Below, piece by piece: positions 1-6,566 of a stretch of 64,000 nt of DNA. Made by a program: the position numbers and the translations under genes. Source of the DNA: Methanomicrobia archaeon (GTDB taxonomy: Archaea; Methanobacteriota_B; Thermococci; Methanofastidiosales; NM3); the NCBI GenBank assembly GCA_030603445.1, contig JAUVXU010000005.1:1-64000 (forward strand), given 5' to 3'. Each line of letters begins with the position of its first letter. Within the stretch, counting starts at the first letter, position 1. The notes beneath the pieces are model-generated. The model had not been told where the DNA came from. It saw nothing but the letters and a program-made list of their open reading frames with translations, and did not search any database.

Positions 1-172
1 CCTTTGCTGCTATCTTGCTATGGAGATGATAAACACCAATCTTGAGCGCGGTATATCCGGTATGATGGGTGGTATCCTAGCAACACGTGGTGCTACATGG
101 GCACTCCTCATGGGAGTCTTGTTCTACCTTGCACTAGCATACGGTACAGACATGAAGACACTAAAAAAGTAG
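1..172 (+). CDS. C-terminal end of a membrane protein (partial)
   Basis: The reading frame enters from outside the window and stops at TAG 170-172, leaving about 56 residues. The visible part is amphipathic (NTNLERGISGMMGG) followed by one strongly hydrophobic segment (about residues 32-48 of the fragment, ALLMGVLFYLALAYG) and a short basic tail (DMKTLKK), so the C-terminus is a membrane helix with a charged end. I do not recognise the family from this fragment. It lies upstream of, and on the same strand as, two small membrane proteins, but a T-rich tract follows its stop, so co-transcription is uncertain. Confidence 0.6.
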   Translation, partial: LCCYLAMEMINTNLERGISGMMGGILATRGATWALLMGVLFYLALAYGTDMKTLKK

Positions 173-177
173 GTTAA

Positions 178-212
178 TACTTACTTTTTCTATTTTTCTT
201 TTTTTTATTTTT
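178..212 (+). terminator. T-rich archaeal-type transcription terminator
   Basis: Directly after the stop codon at 172 there are several runs of 4-8 T residues on the + strand without a clear hairpin, the usual appearance of an archaeal oligo-T terminator. It would end the transcript of the partial gene. The next gene has its own GGTGA ribosome-binding site. Confidence 0.45.
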
Positions 213-260
213 ACGATAACTTTTTAAAATCAATACTGTACTCTTCTATGGTGAATATTA

Positions 261-458
261 ATGAATGAAAAAAAAGCTGTAGGCATTCTCCTGATAGTAA
301 TATTCATATTTATATACATCTTTAGGAACATGCAAAGCATGGTCTCTGAAAATGTTTTAGACCTATTTATTATAGGATTCTTTTTGATTTTGATATTCTT
401 ATGGCAGTTCATAAGCCCTAGTCGAGAAAAAAAAGAAATAAAGGAAGGGGAGCAATAA
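261..458 (+). CDS. Small two-helix membrane protein, unknown
   Basis: A 65-residue protein with two predicted membrane helices (about residues 6-21 and 33-51) and a charged C-terminal tail (SREKKEIKEGEQ). The ATG at 261 is preceded by GGTGA at 250-254, 6 nt away, which supports the start. Its stop is only 3 nt from the ATG of the next small membrane protein, so the two are almost certainly co-transcribed and may form one complex. I do not recognise the family. The neighbouring methyl-transfer genes are on the opposite strand and give no direct functional hint. Confidence 0.6.
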   Translation: MNEKKAVGILLIVIFIFIYIFRNMQSMVSENVLDLFIIGFFLILIFLWQFISPSREKKEIKEGEQ

Positions 459-461
459 CTT

Positions 462-752
462 ATGAAAATGCCAAAACAAAAGAAGAAAATCGACTCTAAA
501 ATACTAGAGCGTCTCGTACCTCTAACACTCCTGGCCTTCATTGTAGGGGTTGGGGGAGTATGGGTGATCCACAACTATATTACATCAAATCAACTTGTAA
601 TATTTGCATACATGATTGTGTTTTGGTTTTTGTTCCAGTCAAAATTCGTTGAGATAGTTCGTGGTCCAAAATACTTTGAAAAGAGAAAGGATGAGGCTAA
701 AAGAAAAACAGAAGAAACTAAGAAGAAATACGGCGGGAAGCCCCACTCTTAA
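462..752 (+). CDS. Small membrane protein with basic C-terminal tail, unknown
   Basis: A 96-residue protein: a lysine-rich N-terminus, two hydrophobic segments (about 20-37 and 44-58) and a highly charged, probably helical, lysine/glutamate-rich C-terminal tail from about residue 65. GGGGAG lies about 8 nt upstream of the ATG. It starts 3 nt after the preceding small membrane protein, with which it forms a two-gene unit. Its end overlaps the end of the convergent coiled-coil gene by 4 nt. Function unknown; the pair could be accessory subunits of a larger membrane complex encoded upstream of the window (inference only). Confidence 0.6.
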   Translation: MKMPKQKKKIDSKILERLVPLTLLAFIVGVGGVWVIHNYITSNQLVIFAYMIVFWFLFQSKFVEIVRGPKYFEKRKDEAKRKTEETKKKYGGKPHS

Positions 753-1087
753 GATTCTAATTCCTTTTTTATCTTTTCTAACATTTCCATCATTTCTAAT
801 ATAGACTTAGCATGTTTTGGTTGTGTATCTTTAAACGCAATATAAAGAGAGTTTAACGCCTCTTTTGAATTCTCAATTCTTATTGAAAAGCTTATAGTTG
901 CGCCTTGTTCCAGCAGCTTTTTCTTTTTGCTTAAAAGCTCTCGCTCTCGTTCCTTGATGCCTGCTTTTTGCATACTTCCTCTAATAAGGGTGCCATAGCT
1001 ATTTTCACTTAACAGTTCATTTGCCAGCTCCGTCTTCTTTTTCAATTCTTCAAGTTGTTCATCGATCTCTTCAATGGTATCATACAT
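749..1087 (-). CDS. Coiled-coil protein co-transcribed with the corrinoid activator
   Basis: A 112-residue, charged, largely helical protein. Residues 5-30 and 45-63 have heptad-like leucine/lysine patterns typical of coiled coils. There is no membrane segment and no cysteine. Its GGTGAT ribosome-binding site overlaps the stop codon of the RACo-like gene just upstream, and only 8 nt separate the two reading frames, so translation is probably coupled. I do not recognise a named family. Being tied to the corrinoid activator suggests a role as adaptor or assembly factor for that protein or for the methyltransferase, but this is inferred only from position. Confidence 0.6.
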   Translation of the reverse strand: MYDTIEEIDEQLEELKKKTELANELLSENSYGTLIRGSMQKAGIKERERELLSKKKKLLEQGATISFSIRIENSKEALNSLYIAFKDTQPKHAKSILEMMEMLEKIKKELES

Positions 1088-1095
1088 ATTATCAC

Positions 1096-2982
1096 CTATT
1101 TGGGGGGCAGAGGGGTGTATACGTTCTTCATTACATTTTTGAACAAAGATAAGTCACTATGCGGGAAGTTCATAGCTGAAACAAACTGATCCTGGAAAGA
1201 ATCATGTGTCGCAAGCTCGATGTAATTAAGATTTTTTAAGATGTCTTTTTCTTCTTCCCGTTTATCCTTTGAAATAAGTGAAACACGTGCTCCGGATCCG
1301 GCAGCATTTCCAACAGATTTAACCTTATTCATTGGTATCTCGGGAAGGAGGCCTATTGTCATGGCATTGGTAATATCAATGTAACTCCCAAAAGCCCCTG
1401 CAATAAGTACGCGGTCTATATTCTTGGCAGTGATGCCTTTAATTTCCATTAGAATTGATGTACCGGCATAAATTGCGGATTTTGCCAATTGTACCTCTCT
1501 GAGATCGTCTGAGGTAATAACAATGTCTCTCTTTATACCAGTATTGCGTGCCCACTCAAGCACAAATTCATAACCTTGATCTCCCTCTCGAATCCTATCA
1601 TTCTCATCTTCCAACTCTTCCCTTATCCTTCCTGTAACATCAATAACAGCAGCCTTCAACATTTCTGCAACAACGTCTATGATTCCTGACCCACAAATTC
1701 CAATCGGTTTTATGTTTCCAATGGTCTCATAGCTTACCTTAAGGCTTCCTCTTTTAATTTTAACGCGTTCAATAGCTCCATTAGCAGCACGCATCCCAAA
1801 CTTTATGCTTGATCCCTCAAGTGCAGGTCCTGCAGCTGCAGAACAGCATATCATTTCATCTTCATTGCCAAGCACAATCTCGCCATTTGTTCCAATATCA
1901 ATGGCCAATGTCATCTCAGGACTTTTGTGAATATCACAAGATAAGATAACACCAACATGATCAGAACCTACAAATCCTGCAACCACAGGAAGCATATGGC
2001 AATTCCCAAGTGGATTAATAGATATGCCAATATCTTTTGCCATAAAATCGATAGGTTGCTTTACAACAGGGCAATAAGGTGCAAGGGATAAGTATTTTGG
2101 ATATATCCCCAAGAATATGTGGTGCATAGCTGTATTTCCTACAATAGTTACCTCTGCAATGGATTCTATAGGTATACCGGCTTTTTCACATCCCTCAGAT
2201 ATTATCTTATTTACCCCTTCTACTACAAGATTTGAAAGCTTTTGCAGGTTTTCTGGTTTGAATGAATACGAGATGCGTGCCATTAGGTCATCGCCATAGG
2301 GTATCTGTGGATTCATCATTGACCCAACGCCTACTATTTCTCCATTGCTCAGGTCCATTACATATGCCACCATCGTTGTTGTGCCAATATCCACGGCCGC
2401 CCCATATGTATTTTTAACAGAACTGTCATTTATCGCCACTACATGGTTCTTGTACATTGTAACTGAAACATCATACTTGTTATCGCGTATCAAGATTGGC
2501 AGTTGTCTTAATGTAGAAATATCCATTGTTATCGTTTCATGGCCACTATTATCTGCCAATGCATCTTCCAATCTATACCAATCACATTTGCTGTCCTCTA
2601 AGGAGGGGGATGGTAACACGGCTGAAAATACTTTTATCAATGGATTTACAATAACCGGTGCTTCAGCACCTTCGATAAGAATCTTTTGTTTTCCAAGTCT
2701 GCTTTCCTCAGGAATATCAATAATGCAGTCACCCTTGATTATGGCCTTGCAGGAAAGGCGGGCTCCAGCAGCAAGCTCTTCTTCTGAAAGTTTCTTACGT
2801 TCGCTTGTTGTGATATCTCCCAATACACCTTCTTTAAGATATATTTTGCATTTTCCACACGTGCCCTTGCCACCGCAAGGAGCATCTAGGCTCTCCCCTG
2901 CATCGTTGGCAGCTTCTAAAACCAACAACCCCTTGTCAACTTTAATTTTCTTGCCAGAAGGTTCAAATACTACTGTAACCAT
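1096..2982 (-). CDS. Corrinoid-protein reductive activator with N-terminal 2Fe-2S ferredoxin (RACo/ASKHA family)
   Basis: A 628-residue protein of the reductive activator of corrinoid proteins family. Residues 1-90 form a plant-type 2Fe-2S domain with the cysteine pattern C36-GGKGT-C42-GK-C45 and a distal C78. The rest is a linker plus an actin/hexokinase-like ATPase (ASKHA, DUF4445) with phosphate-binding glycine motifs (VDIGTTTMVAY, IDIGTNGEIVLG, ICGSGIID, IAGAFGSYID). Such proteins spend ATP to reduce inactive Co(II) corrinoid to Co(I). The ATG at 2982 has GGTGA 4 nt upstream and is preferred to an in-frame TTG 24 nt earlier. It lies downstream of a fused methyltransferase/corrinoid gene, its likely substrate, and upstream of the coiled-coil gene. 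A TATA-like TTTTTATATG near 3014 suggests its own promoter. Confidence 0.9.
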   Translation of the reverse strand: MVTVVFEPSGKKIKVDKGLLVLEAANDAGESLDAPCGGKGTCGKCKIYLKEGVLGDITTSERKKLSEEELAAGARLSCKAIIKGDCIIDIPEESRLGKQKILIEGAEAPVIVNPLIKVFSAVLPSPSLEDSKCDWYRLEDALADNSGHETITMDISTLRQLPILIRDNKYDVSVTMYKNHVVAINDSSVKNTYGAAVDIGTTTMVAYVMDLSNGEIVGVGSMMNPQIPYGDDLMARISYSFKPENLQKLSNLVVEGVNKIISEGCEKAGIPIESIAEVTIVGNTAMHHIFLGIYPKYLSLAPYCPVVKQPIDFMAKDIGISINPLGNCHMLPVVAGFVGSDHVGVILSCDIHKSPEMTLAIDIGTNGEIVLGNEDEMICCSAAAGPALEGSSIKFGMRAANGAIERVKIKRGSLKVSYETIGNIKPIGICGSGIIDVVAEMLKAAVIDVTGRIREELEDENDRIREGDQGYEFVLEWARNTGIKRDIVITSDDLREVQLAKSAIYAGTSILMEIKGITAKNIDRVLIAGAFGSYIDITNAMTIGLLPEIPMNKVKSVGNAAGSGARVSLISKDKREEEKDILKNLNYIELATHDSFQDQFVSAMNFPHSDLSLFKNVMKNVYTPLPPK

Positions 2983-3028
2983 GAGTTCACCATAAAAGTC
3001 TAACAAGAAGCATATAAAAATTTAATTA

Positions 3029-3076
3029 TTAAAAAAGAGAAAAGAGAAAATAAGAAAAAAGAAAGAGAAAAGAAAA
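3029..3076 (-). terminator. Polypyrimidine terminator after the methyltransferase gene
   Basis: On the minus strand the stop codon of the corrinoid methyltransferase is followed by about 45 nt consisting almost only of T and C, with several T runs. This matches an archaeal oligo-T terminator and separates the methyltransferase from the activator gene, which has a TATA-like element shortly after. Confidence 0.5.
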
Positions 3077-4828
3077 TTAGTAGGAAGAGTGTATCTCATC
3101 CCTGATTTCTTTCCATTTCTTACCTGATTTAACTGCCTTAAGAACAGAATCGCCAACTTCGGGGCCGTCAGCGTAAATTGCATAGTCCATTGTTTCTGCA
3201 AAAGTAGTATCGACTGAACCACCAGCAACTACGAAAGGAATATCCAATTTTTCTTCTGACATTGCCTTTGCTATCTTCGGGAAAGCTCCCCTTGTTGATG
3301 TCATAAGGGAAGTACCAGACACTACATCAGGTTTTTCTTTCTTTACACTTTCAAGTACTTTTTCAGGCTTGACAGACTTTCCAAGATCTATTACCTCGTA
3401 TCCTTTTGCCTCAAGGATCGTAGACACGATGTTCTTTCCTATCTCGTGTACGTCACCATCAGCAACGTGCATGATTATCTTGCCTTTCTTCTTAATTCCA
3501 CCAAGTGATCCTTTGCAGTGATTGATACCTGCCTGCATTGCCCCACTGGCAAGTAAAATCTCTGGTACGAAGACATAGCCTCCATCGTAGAGCTTGGCAA
3601 CTCCAATCGCACCTGCAAGAAGTGCTTCTTCAACAATCTTCACAGGATCGTACCCAGCTTCTAAAAGCTCAAGTGTCATTTTCGAAGATGTTTCCTTGTC
3701 TCCATCCATGACCACTTGTGTAAGCTCCTTGAGCTTTGCGTCGTCTGGAAGGAATTCTGCGACTATCTCCTTTTTAGGTCTTCTCTTCTTCTTCTTCTTC
3801 TCGTGTGGTTTTGTAGCTTCCACAAGTGCCTTGATGTTCTCAATAGGCGTATAAGGTGGAGTACCGCAAGCTGGACAGAGTATATTCACACCATCCCTTA
3901 TGTTCTCCAAACCTTCTTTATATACGAGTTCAGGTGAACCAAGCATCATGACACGGACCGTCTCAAGGGATCCCATGAGCCCCATTCTCTTCCCAATGGT
4001 TCTGTAAGCGTCAATTGTCACACATCCCGGAGCTTCGAATGAGAAAGTATCAAAGCCTGTATCTGGGGCGTGCATCAAGAAAGGCGCGGTGTTACCACAG
4101 ATGTGCAAGTATGAAGGAGTATCTTTAATCGCACGAGTAAAGCGCTTGTAAACAGGTACCATTAGTGTACTAAAGGATTCTGGAGAAAGAAGATCACCAG
4201 AGGCTGTTGGATCAGGCATATAAATTGAGTCTGCCCCATGATTATCAATAGCATCGCGTGCTATATCTATCAAAAGATCGTTGACTACATCCAAACACTG
4301 CGTAAACTTTTCTGGATTTGTCTTTGACATCTCAAGTAAAGGTTCTACTCCCCATAAATGTCCGGCAACTGTTATATGTCCTGTGAGCACACGACCGCAG
4401 CTCACTGTGTCCCCATAATTCTCTGACAATATGTCAAGACAACCTTGTATCATTGGGTTTCTACCATTGTCAAGAGCGTTCTCAGGTATATTACAATCGT
4501 CTGGATCCTTTCCTGCCCAAATGTGCTTTATAACTGAAGGATGTCTATCCTTTGTACCGAGATCTATAATGTCAGTTCCACCTATCGCGGATACTTCGCT
4601 TACTAGATCGTTGTGGCTGATAATACTATCAAGACCGCACACTTCATAACGTCCGGCTTGGAATTTTGCCAACACTTCAGGTTTCAATTGGCAGTCTGGC
4701 CAGGATACTCCAGTAGCTTCCATTAAAGGAACAACAAAATTTGAAAGTATTGCTGCAGACGTACGGTCTGTATTACCGTTTTGAAGGGCTGTCAAAAATC
4801 TCCTTTTTGGTGTCATTTCACGTACCAT
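3077..4828 (-). CDS. Fused methyltransferase-corrinoid protein (methylated-thiol/methanol-type methyl transfer)
   Basis: A 583-residue two-part enzyme. Residues 1-340 have the uroporphyrinogen-decarboxylase fold of MtaA/MtbA/CmuA-type methyltransferases, with the zinc ligand set H242-x-C244 and a later cysteine in C318-PA-C321. A lysine-rich linker (343-354) joins a corrinoid module: a helical cap (about 360-445) and a Rossmann B12 domain with the cobalt-ligand motif D459-x-H461-x-x-G464. The protein should hold the methyl group on cobalt and move it between substrate and coenzyme M. The ATG has AAGGAGG 7 nt upstream. Family knowledge: CmuA has this order, and fused proteins of this kind are described for methylated-thiol metabolism in Methanofastidiosa. 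Substrate is inferred; methanol, methylamine or a methoxylated compound remain possible. Confidence 0.88.
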   Translation of the reverse strand: MVREMTPKRRFLTALQNGNTDRTSAAILSNFVVPLMEATGVSWPDCQLKPEVLAKFQAGRYEVCGLDSIISHNDLVSEVSAIGGTDIIDLGTKDRHPSVIKHIWAGKDPDDCNIPENALDNGRNPMIQGCLDILSENYGDTVSCGRVLTGHITVAGHLWGVEPLLEMSKTNPEKFTQCLDVVNDLLIDIARDAIDNHGADSIYMPDPTASGDLLSPESFSTLMVPVYKRFTRAIKDTPSYLHICGNTAPFLMHAPDTGFDTFSFEAPGCVTIDAYRTIGKRMGLMGSLETVRVMMLGSPELVYKEGLENIRDGVNILCPACGTPPYTPIENIKALVEATKPHEKKKKKRRPKKEIVAEFLPDDAKLKELTQVVMDGDKETSSKMTLELLEAGYDPVKIVEEALLAGAIGVAKLYDGGYVFVPEILLASGAMQAGINHCKGSLGGIKKKGKIIMHVADGDVHEIGKNIVSTILEAKGYEVIDLGKSVKPEKVLESVKKEKPDVVSGTSLMTSTRGAFPKIAKAMSEEKLDIPFVVAGGSVDTTFAETMDYAIYADGPEVGDSVLKAVKSGKKWKEIRDEIHSSY

Positions 4829-4859
4829 ATTTTTTCCTCCTTAGAGATATTAACAAAAG

Positions 4860-4910
4860 GATTTCTATAATAGAAATCTTTCGAATTAATTTAACATTTA
4901 TAAATTATAA
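4860..4910 (-). promoter_or_regulatory. Promoter of the methyltransferase gene with a hairpin/operator-like palindrome
   Basis: On the minus strand an AT-rich TATA-like stretch (TTTATAATTTATAAATG, about 4896-4912) is followed about 25 nt later by a perfect inverted repeat, GATTTCTA-TAA-TAGAAATC (4860-4878), and then by the AAGGAGG site. The inverted repeat would sit at the predicted transcription start, a usual place for an archaeal repressor site; it could also form a short hairpin in the leader. Inference from spacing only. Confidence 0.4.
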
Positions 4911-5019
4911 AAAGGTTTGTATGGACATAATATCCAGGTGCACCATAAATTTTTTCGTGTAGCGATATTTGATTATCTTTTCCAAAAAGAAAGATAAATA
5001 TTACTTATTTAAAAATAGT

Positions 5020-5688
5020 TTATTTTGACACCAACACAGCATCATCTATACATAAATGCCCACAATCGTTCTCCCAAACAATTCTTTTTTTAACTATTTC
5101 AATTTTTTTTCTAAATATGGGTGCATCAGTGACAAAACTCTCATATTCGCCGCCTTCACCTGCAAGGTTTACGCCATAGCGCTTATGTGCCTTAATTAGC
5201 ATTTCACACACTTCTTCATCAATTGTTCTTCCTAAAAGCTCTTTTCCAAGGCCCCATGCATATACACCAATTATCATGACATCCATCATGCCAGAAACAT
5301 CCTTAAGAACTGTGCGCTCATCGCATTGCCATAACGGAGCAACGCATTTTAATCCAAGCTCATCGCATATCCTCTTGATTCGTTCGTACTGGTATTTTGA
5401 CTTTATTGCGCCGCTGCATACTCCTTCAACATCCATAGTTTCAAGCGCAGATCTTAGGTCGTTTAACTCCTTCTCCTTTTCACCTTTCGTGATGACCTCG
5501 ATATGTTCTAAACCCATGGACTCTGTTTGAAGCCTGGCCCATTTGACATTGGGGTAATGAAACATATAGGAATCATCTCGCTTTGGGATCATTGTTAGCA
5601 CTTTTGAGAAGGAAATTCCTTGCTCCATTGCAAGACAAAGTGAATAAATCGAATCCTTGCCTCCACTAGAAAGTTGCACAAACCCCAT
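5020..5688 (-). CDS. dph6: Diphthine-ammonia ligase (Dph6 family)
   Basis: A 222-residue PP-loop ATP pyrophosphatase. The PP-loop SGGKDS is at residues 8-13, followed by the downstream family signature with GVYAWGLGKELLGR and GEGGEYES. Dph6 catalyses the last, ATP-dependent amidation of diphthine on translation elongation factor 2. The length is typical. There is no ribosome-binding site; a TATA box (ACTTATAAAATAT) lies about 27 nt upstream of the ATG, so the mRNA is probably leaderless. The divergent DGGGP synthase gene appears to share that same TATA element. Confidence 0.85.
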   Translation of the reverse strand: MGFVQLSSGGKDSIYSLCLAMEQGISFSKVLTMIPKRDDSYMFHYPNVKWARLQTESMGLEHIEVITKGEKEKELNDLRSALETMDVEGVCSGAIKSKYQYERIKRICDELGLKCVAPLWQCDERTVLKDVSGMMDVMIIGVYAWGLGKELLGRTIDEEVCEMLIKAHKRYGVNLAGEGGEYESFVTDAPIFRKKIEIVKKRIVWENDCGHLCIDDAVLVSK

Positions 5689-5706
5689 TGTAAGAAGTAA
5701 GAGGCA

Positions 5707-5721
5707 AATATTTTATAAGTG
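5707..5721. promoter_or_regulatory. Single TATA element serving two divergent leaderless genes
   Basis: The 53-bp gap between Dph6 (ATG ends at 5688) and DGGGP synthase (ATG at 5742) has only one TATA-like box, AAATATTTTATAAGTG, centred near 5715. It is about 27 nt from either start codon and reads as a TATA box on both strands. Confidence 0.5.
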
Positions 5722-5741
5722 TTTGGTGGTTATCAAATCTT

Positions 5742-6566
5742 ATGCAGGCAAAGGGTTTGATACTACTAATACGGCCGCTTAATGCCATAGTGGCATCGTT
5801 TGCAGTTCTCCTTGCTGCATTCATGACACATGAAATGAATTACAAAGCTATATTGGCCATCGCCTCCGTGATCTTCATATCTGCTGGCGGAAATAGCATT
5901 AATGATTATTTTGACTATGAGATAGACAAGATAAACAAACCAAAAAGGCCTCTGCCGGCAAACCTTATTTCATTAAGAGAAGCATTTCATTTCTCTATTT
6001 TCATGTTTGCAATAGGCGTTTTCATTGCTTTTTTCATTAATATTGCCTGTTTTATCATTGCAATAGGATCCTCAATGCTGCTATACTATTATGCTAAAGT
6101 GCTCAAGAACGCAGGCTTTCCAGGAAACTTATCTATAGCTGGATTAACAAGTATGGCAATTATCTATGGCGGGTTATCTGTCGCAGGGATAGACGAGATA
6201 ATCTTTGTTGCGCTATTTGCATTTCTTATAAACCTTGGGCGAGAGATAATAAAAGATGTAGAGGATTACGAGGGGGATATTGCGTGCGGGGCGCATACAC
6301 TTGCTATAAATCTAGGGATACAAAGGGCATTATTAATTGGGATAATACCCCTTATAGCAATCATGATCTCAACACCAATGCCGTTCATATTAGGTATGTA
6401 CAATAAATATTATATGATAATTATGGCAATTGGGGTTGATATGCCTTTAATATATTGTATAACTAAAATAGCATCCTCCCCAACATCAAAAACTGCAGAA
6501 GAAGTAAAAAAAATACTCAAGATTATAATCATTTTAGGCATTTTAGGTCTGTATATTGGAAGTTAA
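5742..6566 (+). CDS. Digeranylgeranylglyceryl phosphate (DGGGP) synthase, UbiA family
   Basis: A 274-residue integral membrane prenyltransferase with about eight or nine hydrophobic segments. It carries both aspartate-rich UbiA motifs: N54-D55-xx-D58-xxx-D62 in NDYFDYEID, and REIIKDVEDYEGD near residue 165. DGGGP synthase adds the second geranylgeranyl chain to glycerol-1-phosphate, a core step in archaeal ether-lipid synthesis. The length and the KPKRPLP segment after motif 1 fit this subfamily better than ubiquinone-type UbiA. Probably leaderless from the shared TATA box. The next gene follows after 9 nt, suggesting an operon. Confidence 0.88.
   Translation: MQAKGLILLIRPLNAIVASFAVLLAAFMTHEMNYKAILAIASVIFISAGGNSINDYFDYEIDKINKPKRPLPANLISLREAFHFSIFMFAIGVFIAFFINIACFIIAIGSSMLLYYYAKVLKNAGFPGNLSIAGLTSMAIIYGGLSVAGIDEIIFVALFAFLINLGREIIKDVEDYEGDIACGAHTLAINLGIQRALLIGIIPLIAIMISTPMPFILGMYNKYYMIIMAIGVDMPLIYCITKIASSPTSKTAEEVKKILKIIIILGILGLYIGS

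What the first reader, a model, noticed from the sequence alone, without database searches (positions are those of the whole stretch)
749..4828. Self-contained methyl-corrinoid module: fused methyltransferase-corrinoid protein, RACo and a coiled-coil partner
One protein carries both the MtaA/CmuA-type methyltransferase (zinc motif HxC ... C) and the cobalt-binding DxHxxG module. Its likely reductive activator follows, and a coiled-coil protein is translationally coupled to the activator. This is a compact version of systems that usually need three or four genes. It is like the methylated-thiol fusions reported in Methanofastidiosa, but the coiled-coil partner is not part of any description I know.
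Basis: partly seen in the sequence, partly recalled or inferred. Interest (0 to 1): 0.6.

Follow-up and report, generated by a model that had tools for sequence, protein, structure and literature searches.

The report
Methanogen methyl-transfer enzyme, activator, helical partner
An uncultured methane-producing archaeon carries, side by side, a one-piece enzyme that probably strips methyl groups from simple sulfur compounds, the protein that recharges that enzyme's cobalt cofactor, and a small helical protein of unknown role that travels with the recharger in its close relatives; the first two are of known kinds, the third is unexplained.

Summary
In detail: three minus-strand genes. A 583-aa fusion joins an MtaA-type CoM-methyltransferase half and an MtaC-type corrinoid half, with H-x-C...C and DVHEIG motifs. 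Next comes a 2Fe-2S RACo (start better at 2982), then a 112-aa helical protein. The genome has mcrA and belongs to the NM3 family of Methanofastidiosales. Trees put the MT half with MtaA-type enzymes and the corrinoid half as sister of MtaC, where MtsB is reported; neither half groups with CmuA. The genome lacks MtaB, MtmB, MtbB and MttB hits, so a methylthiol:CoM methyltransferase (MtsAB-like) is the best reading, but the substrate is not shown. The fusion is shared with Methanofastidiosia, so it is not new.

'Self-contained' is overdrawn. This RACo is the only one found in a genome with four corrinoid proteins; in Methanofastidiosia its counterpart sits by another cassette. In one relative the RACo-small-gene block is inverted relative to the fusion.

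The small gene is real: it follows RACo in 5 of 5 family genomes, 4-11 nt after its stop, under purifying selection, with no reliable match in 110 other phylum genomes. It has no family or fold match. It is most likely a lineage-specific RACo accessory, inferred from linkage alone.

The parts
3077..4828 (-). 583-aa fusion: MtaA-type methyltransferase half (about residues 1-340), Lys-rich linker (about 341-352), MtaC/MtsB-like corrinoid half (about 360-583)
   Evidence: Pfam/NCBIfam domains; trees; motifs invariant among the relatives aligned
1096..2982 (-). RACo: 2Fe-2S, ATP-dependent corrinoid reductive activator type, 628 aa from the preferred ATG (the ORF list runs to a TTG at 3006)
   Evidence: Fer2 + RACo linker/middle/C-ter; closest solved chain 3zyy_X, E 1.8e-141; start context
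749..1087 (-). 112-aa helical protein of unknown family, probable RACo accessory
   Evidence: orthologues in 5 of 5 family genomes, none at E<=0.001 in 110 others of the phylum; purifying selection; model with four helices; no fold match
2983..3076 (-). T-rich intergenic stretch between fusion and RACo with TATA-like sequence: possible termination plus archaeal promoter
   Evidence: 94 nt, 63% T; T-rich spacers also in the 3 relatives examined; inference only
462..752 (+). 96-aa convergent gene overlapping the coil gene's end by 4 bp; conserved neighbour, role unknown, perhaps not part of the system
   Evidence: beside the coil gene in 5 of 5 family genomes

Best explanation
The 583-aa protein is a one-chain methylthiol:coenzyme M methyltransferase of the MtsA/MtsB type. 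Its MtaA-like zinc half moves a methyl group from methanethiol or dimethyl sulfide to the Co(I) corrinoid of its own C-terminal half, and then from methyl-Co(III) to coenzyme M, feeding Mcr. When Co(I) is oxidised to Co(II), the neighbouring 2Fe-2S RACo restores it with ATP, and very likely does so for the genome's other corrinoid proteins too. The 112-aa helical protein is made in step with RACo and most likely acts as an accessory of RACo (docking, assembly or gating) peculiar to the NM3 family. Shown: domains, motifs, kinship, gene order, purifying selection on the small protein. Inferred: substrate, bifunctionality, shared use of RACo, and any physical contact of the small protein.
For: Domains; MT half inside the clade of MtaA-type enzymes (98/96) and corrinoid half sister of MtaC (100/99). 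PMC9635834 (passages read) says MtsB is sister of MtaC and lists f__NM3 among methyl-dependent methanogens; PMC10418091 (passages read) has one MtaA+MtsA clade. mcrA present; no MtaB, MtmB, MttB or MtbB hit in the own genome. No separate substrate methyltransferase stands beside the fusion. RACo resembles the solved 3zyy (that this is Carboxydothermus RACo is recalled) and, by description, the 2Fe-2S activator MtoD of Methermicoccus, assayed with ATP (PMC8630106, passages read). RACo-coil adjacency 5 of 5, gap 4-11 nt; NM3 versus G004 pS 0.24, pN 0.02; one RACo against four corrinoid proteins.
Against: No authenticated MtsA or MtsB sequence was at hand, so the Mts label rests on the MtaA/MtaC side of the trees and on exclusion. 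The own genome has four stand-alone URO-D methyltransferase-like proteins in two other cassettes that could serve as partner enzymes. The genome is a MAG at 96% completeness, so a missing MtaB or RamA cannot be excluded. The coil gene was not found in Methanofastidiosia (f3), where fusion and RACo are present, so it is not needed for the chemistry. The AlphaFold model of the fusion was poor (mean pLDDT 55.8) and was not used.
Confidence: 0.6

Rival explanations
1. The fusion is only the first methyltransferase plus corrinoid carrier for some other donor (methanol without MtaB, methoxy compounds, methylated thioacids), and a separate MtaA (own C5 359-aa protein) passes the methyl group to coenzyme M.
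For: Own C5 carries a true MtaA by NCBIfam (440.9 bits, cut-off 400); CmuA, same domain order, acts with a separate partner (recalled).
Against: The MT half sits in the MtaA-type clade, not with the divergent C5 MT357 or CmuA; known MtaB, MtmB, MtbB and MttB enzymes were not found in the own genome.
Confidence: 0.25
2. The fusion is a CmuA-type chloromethane methyltransferase.
For: Same domain order; scores above the mtaA_cmuA subfamily cut-off (246.5 versus 235.4).
Against: Only 23% (MT) and 24% (corrinoid) identity to pCMU01 CmuA; CmuA has GNTQDIG where the fusion has GDVHEIG; trees separate both halves.
Confidence: 0.03
3. The small helical protein has nothing to do with RACo function and merely shares its transcript, or serves the convergent 462-752 gene.
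For: No domain or fold match; the 462-752 gene is equally conserved beside it (5 of 5); not found in Methanofastidiosia that have the same RACo type.
Against: 4-11 nt spacing on the RACo strand in 5 of 5, with GGTGA near the RACo stop in 4 of 5 and AGTGATGTGATG in the fifth, G002; block kept intact through an inversion in G001.
Confidence: 0.4
4. The small protein is a corrinoid cap like MtrI, covering the oxidised cobalt.
For: MtrI is also a small four-helix, lineage-limited protein and binds the corrinoid protein MtrA (PMC12774963, passages read).
Against: MtrI uses a Cys as cobalt ligand and has a zinc ribbon (same paper); the window protein has no Cys, and no His is conserved in the five orthologues. 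Its gene goes with RACo, not with the corrinoid gene.
Confidence: 0.08

Closest known systems
Methanofastidiosia fusion orthologues (f3), probably what the literature calls mtsA there
   Same: Same MT-corrinoid order and length (584-586 aa), 48-54% identity, same motifs
   Different: Not next to RACo in the five loci read; no coil gene found
MtsA/MtsB of Methanosarcina barkeri
   Same: MtaA-like and MtaC-like partners; MtsA does both half-reactions (title of Tallant 2001 seen in reference lists)
   Different: Two proteins in a 480 kDa complex (PMC7374477, passage); sequences not compared here
MtsD/F/H of M. acetivorans
   Same: Single fused corrinoid/methyltransferase proteins for methyl sulfides (PMC10762971, passage)
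   Different: Domain order there is corrinoid first as I recall; a protein with that order also exists in the window's genome (C44, 566 aa)
CmuA of Methylorubrum extorquens CM4 (pCMU01)
   Same: Domain order MT then corrinoid
   Different: 23-24% identity, no DxHxxG, different place in the trees
2Fe-2S RACo / MtoD / AcsV
   Same: Fer2, linker, middle, C-terminal domain; 3zyy E 1.8e-141
   Different: Below the AcsV equivalog cut-off (538.8 versus 800); followed by the small helical gene
MtrI of M. mazei
   Same: Small, four helices, lineage-limited, tied to a corrinoid system (PMC12774963, passages)
   Different: Stand-alone gene, Cys ligand and zinc ribbon; none of these here

Membership tests
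MtaA/CmuA methyltransferase subfamily (TIGR01463, PRK06252) | score above curated cut-off | tested here: met
   246.5 against 235.4 and 253.4 against 244
MtaA equivalog (NF040654) | score above curated cut-off | tested here: not met
   232.3 against 400
MtaC equivalog (NF040655, NF040669) | score above curated cut-off | tested here: not met
   199.3 against 420; 201 against 450
CmuA | grouping of both halves with CmuA | tested here: not met
   trees; 23-24% identity, motif differs
MtsA/MtsB methylthiol:CoM methyltransferase | corrinoid half sister of MtaC, MT half in the MtaA-type clade | tested here: met
   100/99 and 98/96; few named references in the trees
MtsA/MtsB methylthiol:CoM methyltransferase | groups with authenticated MtsA and MtsB | not tested
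   no such sequence could be fetched
MtsA/MtsB methylthiol:CoM methyltransferase | activity with methylated thiols and CoM | not testable with these tools
   needs assay
RACo family | RACo linker, middle and C-terminal domains with Fer2 | tested here: met
   all four over Pfam cut-offs
AcsV equivalog (NF040756) | score above curated cut-off | tested here: not met
   538.8 against 800
RamA type | C-terminal 4Fe-4S clusters, no Fer2 | tested here: not met
   Fer2 motif present, no C-terminal cluster motif; separate clade 100/100
Any known family for the 112-aa protein | Pfam, NCBIfam, PDB sequence or fold match | tested here: not met
   best fold E 2.8

The most novel reading that the evidence does not exclude
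The 112-aa protein is a dedicated partner subunit of a corrinoid reductive activator, for instance an adaptor that lets one RACo serve several unlike corrinoid proteins in the NM3 family; I saw no description of such a subunit in the searches made.
Probability: 0.35. Interest if true: 0.65.

Novelty: new variant of a known kind. Interest (0 to 1): 0.42.

Why it matters
How one RACo recognises several different corrinoid proteins is open. If the small protein is a RACo partner, it gives a handle on that question in a methanogen lineage with no isolate that I know of. The fusion itself adds a gene and its context for methyl-sulfide methane formation in the NM3 family, including a genome without a MtaB hit where two of its relatives have one.

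Tried and rejected
AlphaFold model of the fusion: mean pLDDT 55.8 with five rows, not used. Fold search of the small protein: 25 matches, best E 2.8, none at E<=0.001. PDB profile search: 4 matches, best E 0.044, taken as chance. Sensitive Pfam scan of three members: best E 0.012 (spectrin-like), in 1 of 3 members. The profile search for the small protein at E<=1 gave 15 genomes outside the family with weak matches (best E 0.007), taken as chance. Viral contigs: 43 pattern matches, no relative of the fusion. Plasmids: small protein, no match. Rfam on 1-6000: none. The sigma-70 promoter scan was uninformative (9 found, 11.1 expected). CmuA reading rejected. I first took a 642-aa open frame in NM3 for a second MtaA-MtaC fusion; one search lists a separate 350-aa MtaA ORF with its own stop, so that was dropped. 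Adjacency of contigs C5 and C32 of G001 was considered; no end overlap was found, and one search showed a different gene upstream of RACo, so an inversion is the better reading. In one search one row (SA_NM3) was mis-framed; the MT tree was rebuilt. Left out of the trees: the partial G004 fusion and the partial f3 fusions (G012, G013 C51, G015, G017, G018). In the RACo tree 27 of the 30 loci were used; fragments L046, L047 and L049 were left out.

Full report
WHAT IS THERE. The three ORFs are on the minus strand as described. The 583-aa fusion has a URO-D domain (residues 6-340) followed by the two B12-binding domains (367-439 and 449-554). The zinc-type residues H242, C244 and C321 and the cobalt-binding D459-V-H461-x-I-G464 are invariant among the window, two NM3 copies, the G002 copy and the Methanofastidiosia copy L007, and the motifs are present in all 11 archaeal fusions compared. 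A Lys-rich linker joins the halves in the window's family. RACo has Fer2, linker, middle and C-terminal domains, and its best solved relative is 3zyy_X (E 1.8e-141). An ATG at 2982 after GGTGA is a better start than the TTG at 3006. The 112-aa gene begins 8 nt after the RACo stop.

WHERE IT COMES FROM. The window is G000:C27 of a 1.62 Mb, 96% complete genome with mcrA. A genome of the same genus, G003, has a 207,678-base contig matching record RXIG01000001.1, 'archaeon isolate NM3', in length; G002 matches JAHKLV010000042.1, a Methanofastidiosia MAG, in the same way. G013, in another family of the order (f3), has a 10,166-base contig matching PWMA01000046.1, also Methanofastidiosia. So the window lies in the NM3 family of Methanofastidiosales. 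PMC9635834 (passages read) lists f__NM3 among methyl-dependent hydrogenotrophic methanogens.

RELATIVES OF THE FUSION. Among 115 phylum genomes, fusion-type matches occur in the window's family (5 of 5; one, G004, is cut by a contig end) and in f3, where 5 of 10 have a full-length copy at 48-54% identity and 3 more have pieces spanning the domain boundary or split at a stop or contig end (G012, G015, G018); G017 shows only the MT half and G011 no close match. The four f2 genomes have no match; the two f4 genomes match the corrinoid half only; no other genome of the phylum matches at E<=1e-20. NM3 and G001 have two copies each. Three stand-alone methyltransferases (NM3, G004, G010) nest inside the fusion clade in the tree, so they look like fissions.

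TREES. MT half: inside a clade with M. mazei MtaA, own C5 MtaA and own C44 MT340 (98/96), outside CmuA. Corrinoid half: sister to M. barkeri MtaC plus NM3 MtaC (100/99), apart from the CmuA, MttC and own C44/C5 corrinoid domains. These trees hold 27 and 21 rows and only a few named references. [quoted passage not shown] PMC10418091 (passages read) puts MtaA and MtsA in one clade. Both fit an MtsA-MtsB fusion. No authenticated Mts sequence was available, so this stays inference.

SUBSTRATE BY EXCLUSION. MtaB is found in 2 of 21 order genomes (G003, G004) and not in the window's; MtmB and MttB in 0 of 21; MtbB not in the own genome (the only one searched). All four families rang in the M. acetivorans control. 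NM3 has separate mtaA, mtaC, mtaB and a RamA-type activator in a row. The own genome has two other corrinoid cassettes: C5 (corrinoid, a divergent URO-D methyltransferase, an MtaA above the equivalog cut-off) and C44 (corrinoid, two methyltransferases, and a 566-aa fusion with the corrinoid domain first). So the fusion is not the only route, and a helper from those cassettes is possible.

ACTIVATOR. PF14574 gives one hit in the own genome, and PF02310 gives four corrinoid proteins. The RACo tree separates the Fer2 type (15 rows) from the RamA type (12 rows) at 100/100. In the three f3 loci read (L080, L081, L082) the Fer2 RACo follows a corrinoid-MT-MtaA cassette of the C5 kind, not the fusion; coordinates fit the same for five more (G010, G011, G012, G015, G018). 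In the five f3 fusion loci read (L085, L086, L087, L088/L007, L096) no RACo is adjacent. The simplest reading is that one RACo serves all corrinoid proteins and that its place beside the fusion is a family trait. An archaeal 2Fe-2S activator, MtoD, has been assayed with ATP (PMC8630106, passages read).

THE SMALL PROTEIN. It is found in 5 of 5 family genomes and in none of the 110 others at E<=0.001. A three-row profile at E<=1 found weak matches in 15 genomes outside the family, best 0.007. It lies directly after RACo in 5 of 5, at gaps of 4, 8, 8, 8 and 11 nt, and RACo is followed by the small gene and then by the convergent 462-752-type gene in all five. Fusion, RACo and small gene are in line in four genomes; in G001 the block of RACo, small gene and 462-type gene is inverted relative to the fusion and to the next membrane-protein gene. 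Thus the small gene goes with RACo rather than with the fusion. NM3 versus G004: pS 0.24, pN 0.02; the more distant pairs are near saturation (pS 0.65-0.81, pN 0.26-0.47). Identity to the window's copy across the family is 37-44%, against 71-74% for RACo and 75-83% for the fusion. Three-row model: pLDDT 87.5, pTM 0.51, helices 5-27, 31-64, 67-85, 90-111; the conserved G-x-L-x-R-G-S (residues 32-38) lies at the start of helix 2. No family or fold match and no plasmid match. It has no Cys, and no His is conserved in the five, which speaks against an MtrI-like cobalt cap (PMC12774963, passages read).

TRANSCRIPTION. The 94-nt gap between fusion and RACo is 63% T with TTAAAT and TTTATA; gaps in NM3, G002 and G004 are 51-56% T. 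This suggests termination after the fusion and a promoter for RACo plus small gene. It is inference; the sigma-70 scan does not apply to archaea.

LITERATURE. Paper searches turned up no description of a small helical or coiled-coil partner of RACo or RamA; only asked for one, and most listed papers were seen only as listings or abstract starts. PMC10654671 (passages read) reports an mtsA homologue in a Methanofastidiosales MAG. So the fusion should be counted as known in kind.

VERDICT. Fusion and RACo: ordinary for the lineage, with a likely methylthiol role. Small protein: real, conserved, family-limited and unexplained; it is the part worth a bench test.

Noticed in passing
462-752 (+): 96-aa protein with hydrophobic stretches, convergent with the small gene and overlapping its end by 4 bp; beside it in 5 of 5 family genomes; weak matches (E about 1e-4 to 1e-3) inside longer open frames (213-565 aa) of six genomes of family f5 in the same class.
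   Followed up: partly
L018 13783-18257 (own genome C44): Corrinoid protein, two methyltransferases and a 566-aa corrinoid-first fusion, near an aldehyde ferredoxin oxidoreductase-like gene; looks like a second methyl-transfer cluster.
   Followed up: partly
L019 9191-11992 (own genome C5): Corrinoid protein, a divergent URO-D methyltransferase and a true MtaA (440.9 bits, cut-off 400); the same cassette carries RACo in f3.
   Followed up: partly
L084 4033-10045 (NM3): Methanol cluster mtaA, mtaC, mtaB, RamA-type activator and a CobW-family gene; MtaB was not found in the window's genome.
   Followed up: partly
L090, L091, L092: Stand-alone methyltransferases nested in the fusion clade, apparent fissions; in NM3 (L090) beside ABC-2 type transporter genes.
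   Followed up: no
L100 2914-4767: CmuA of pCMU01 has GNTQDIG in place of DxHxxG.
   Followed up: no
L093 3708-5990 (G002): A divergent RACo-like protein directly followed by a response-regulator-domain protein.
   Followed up: no
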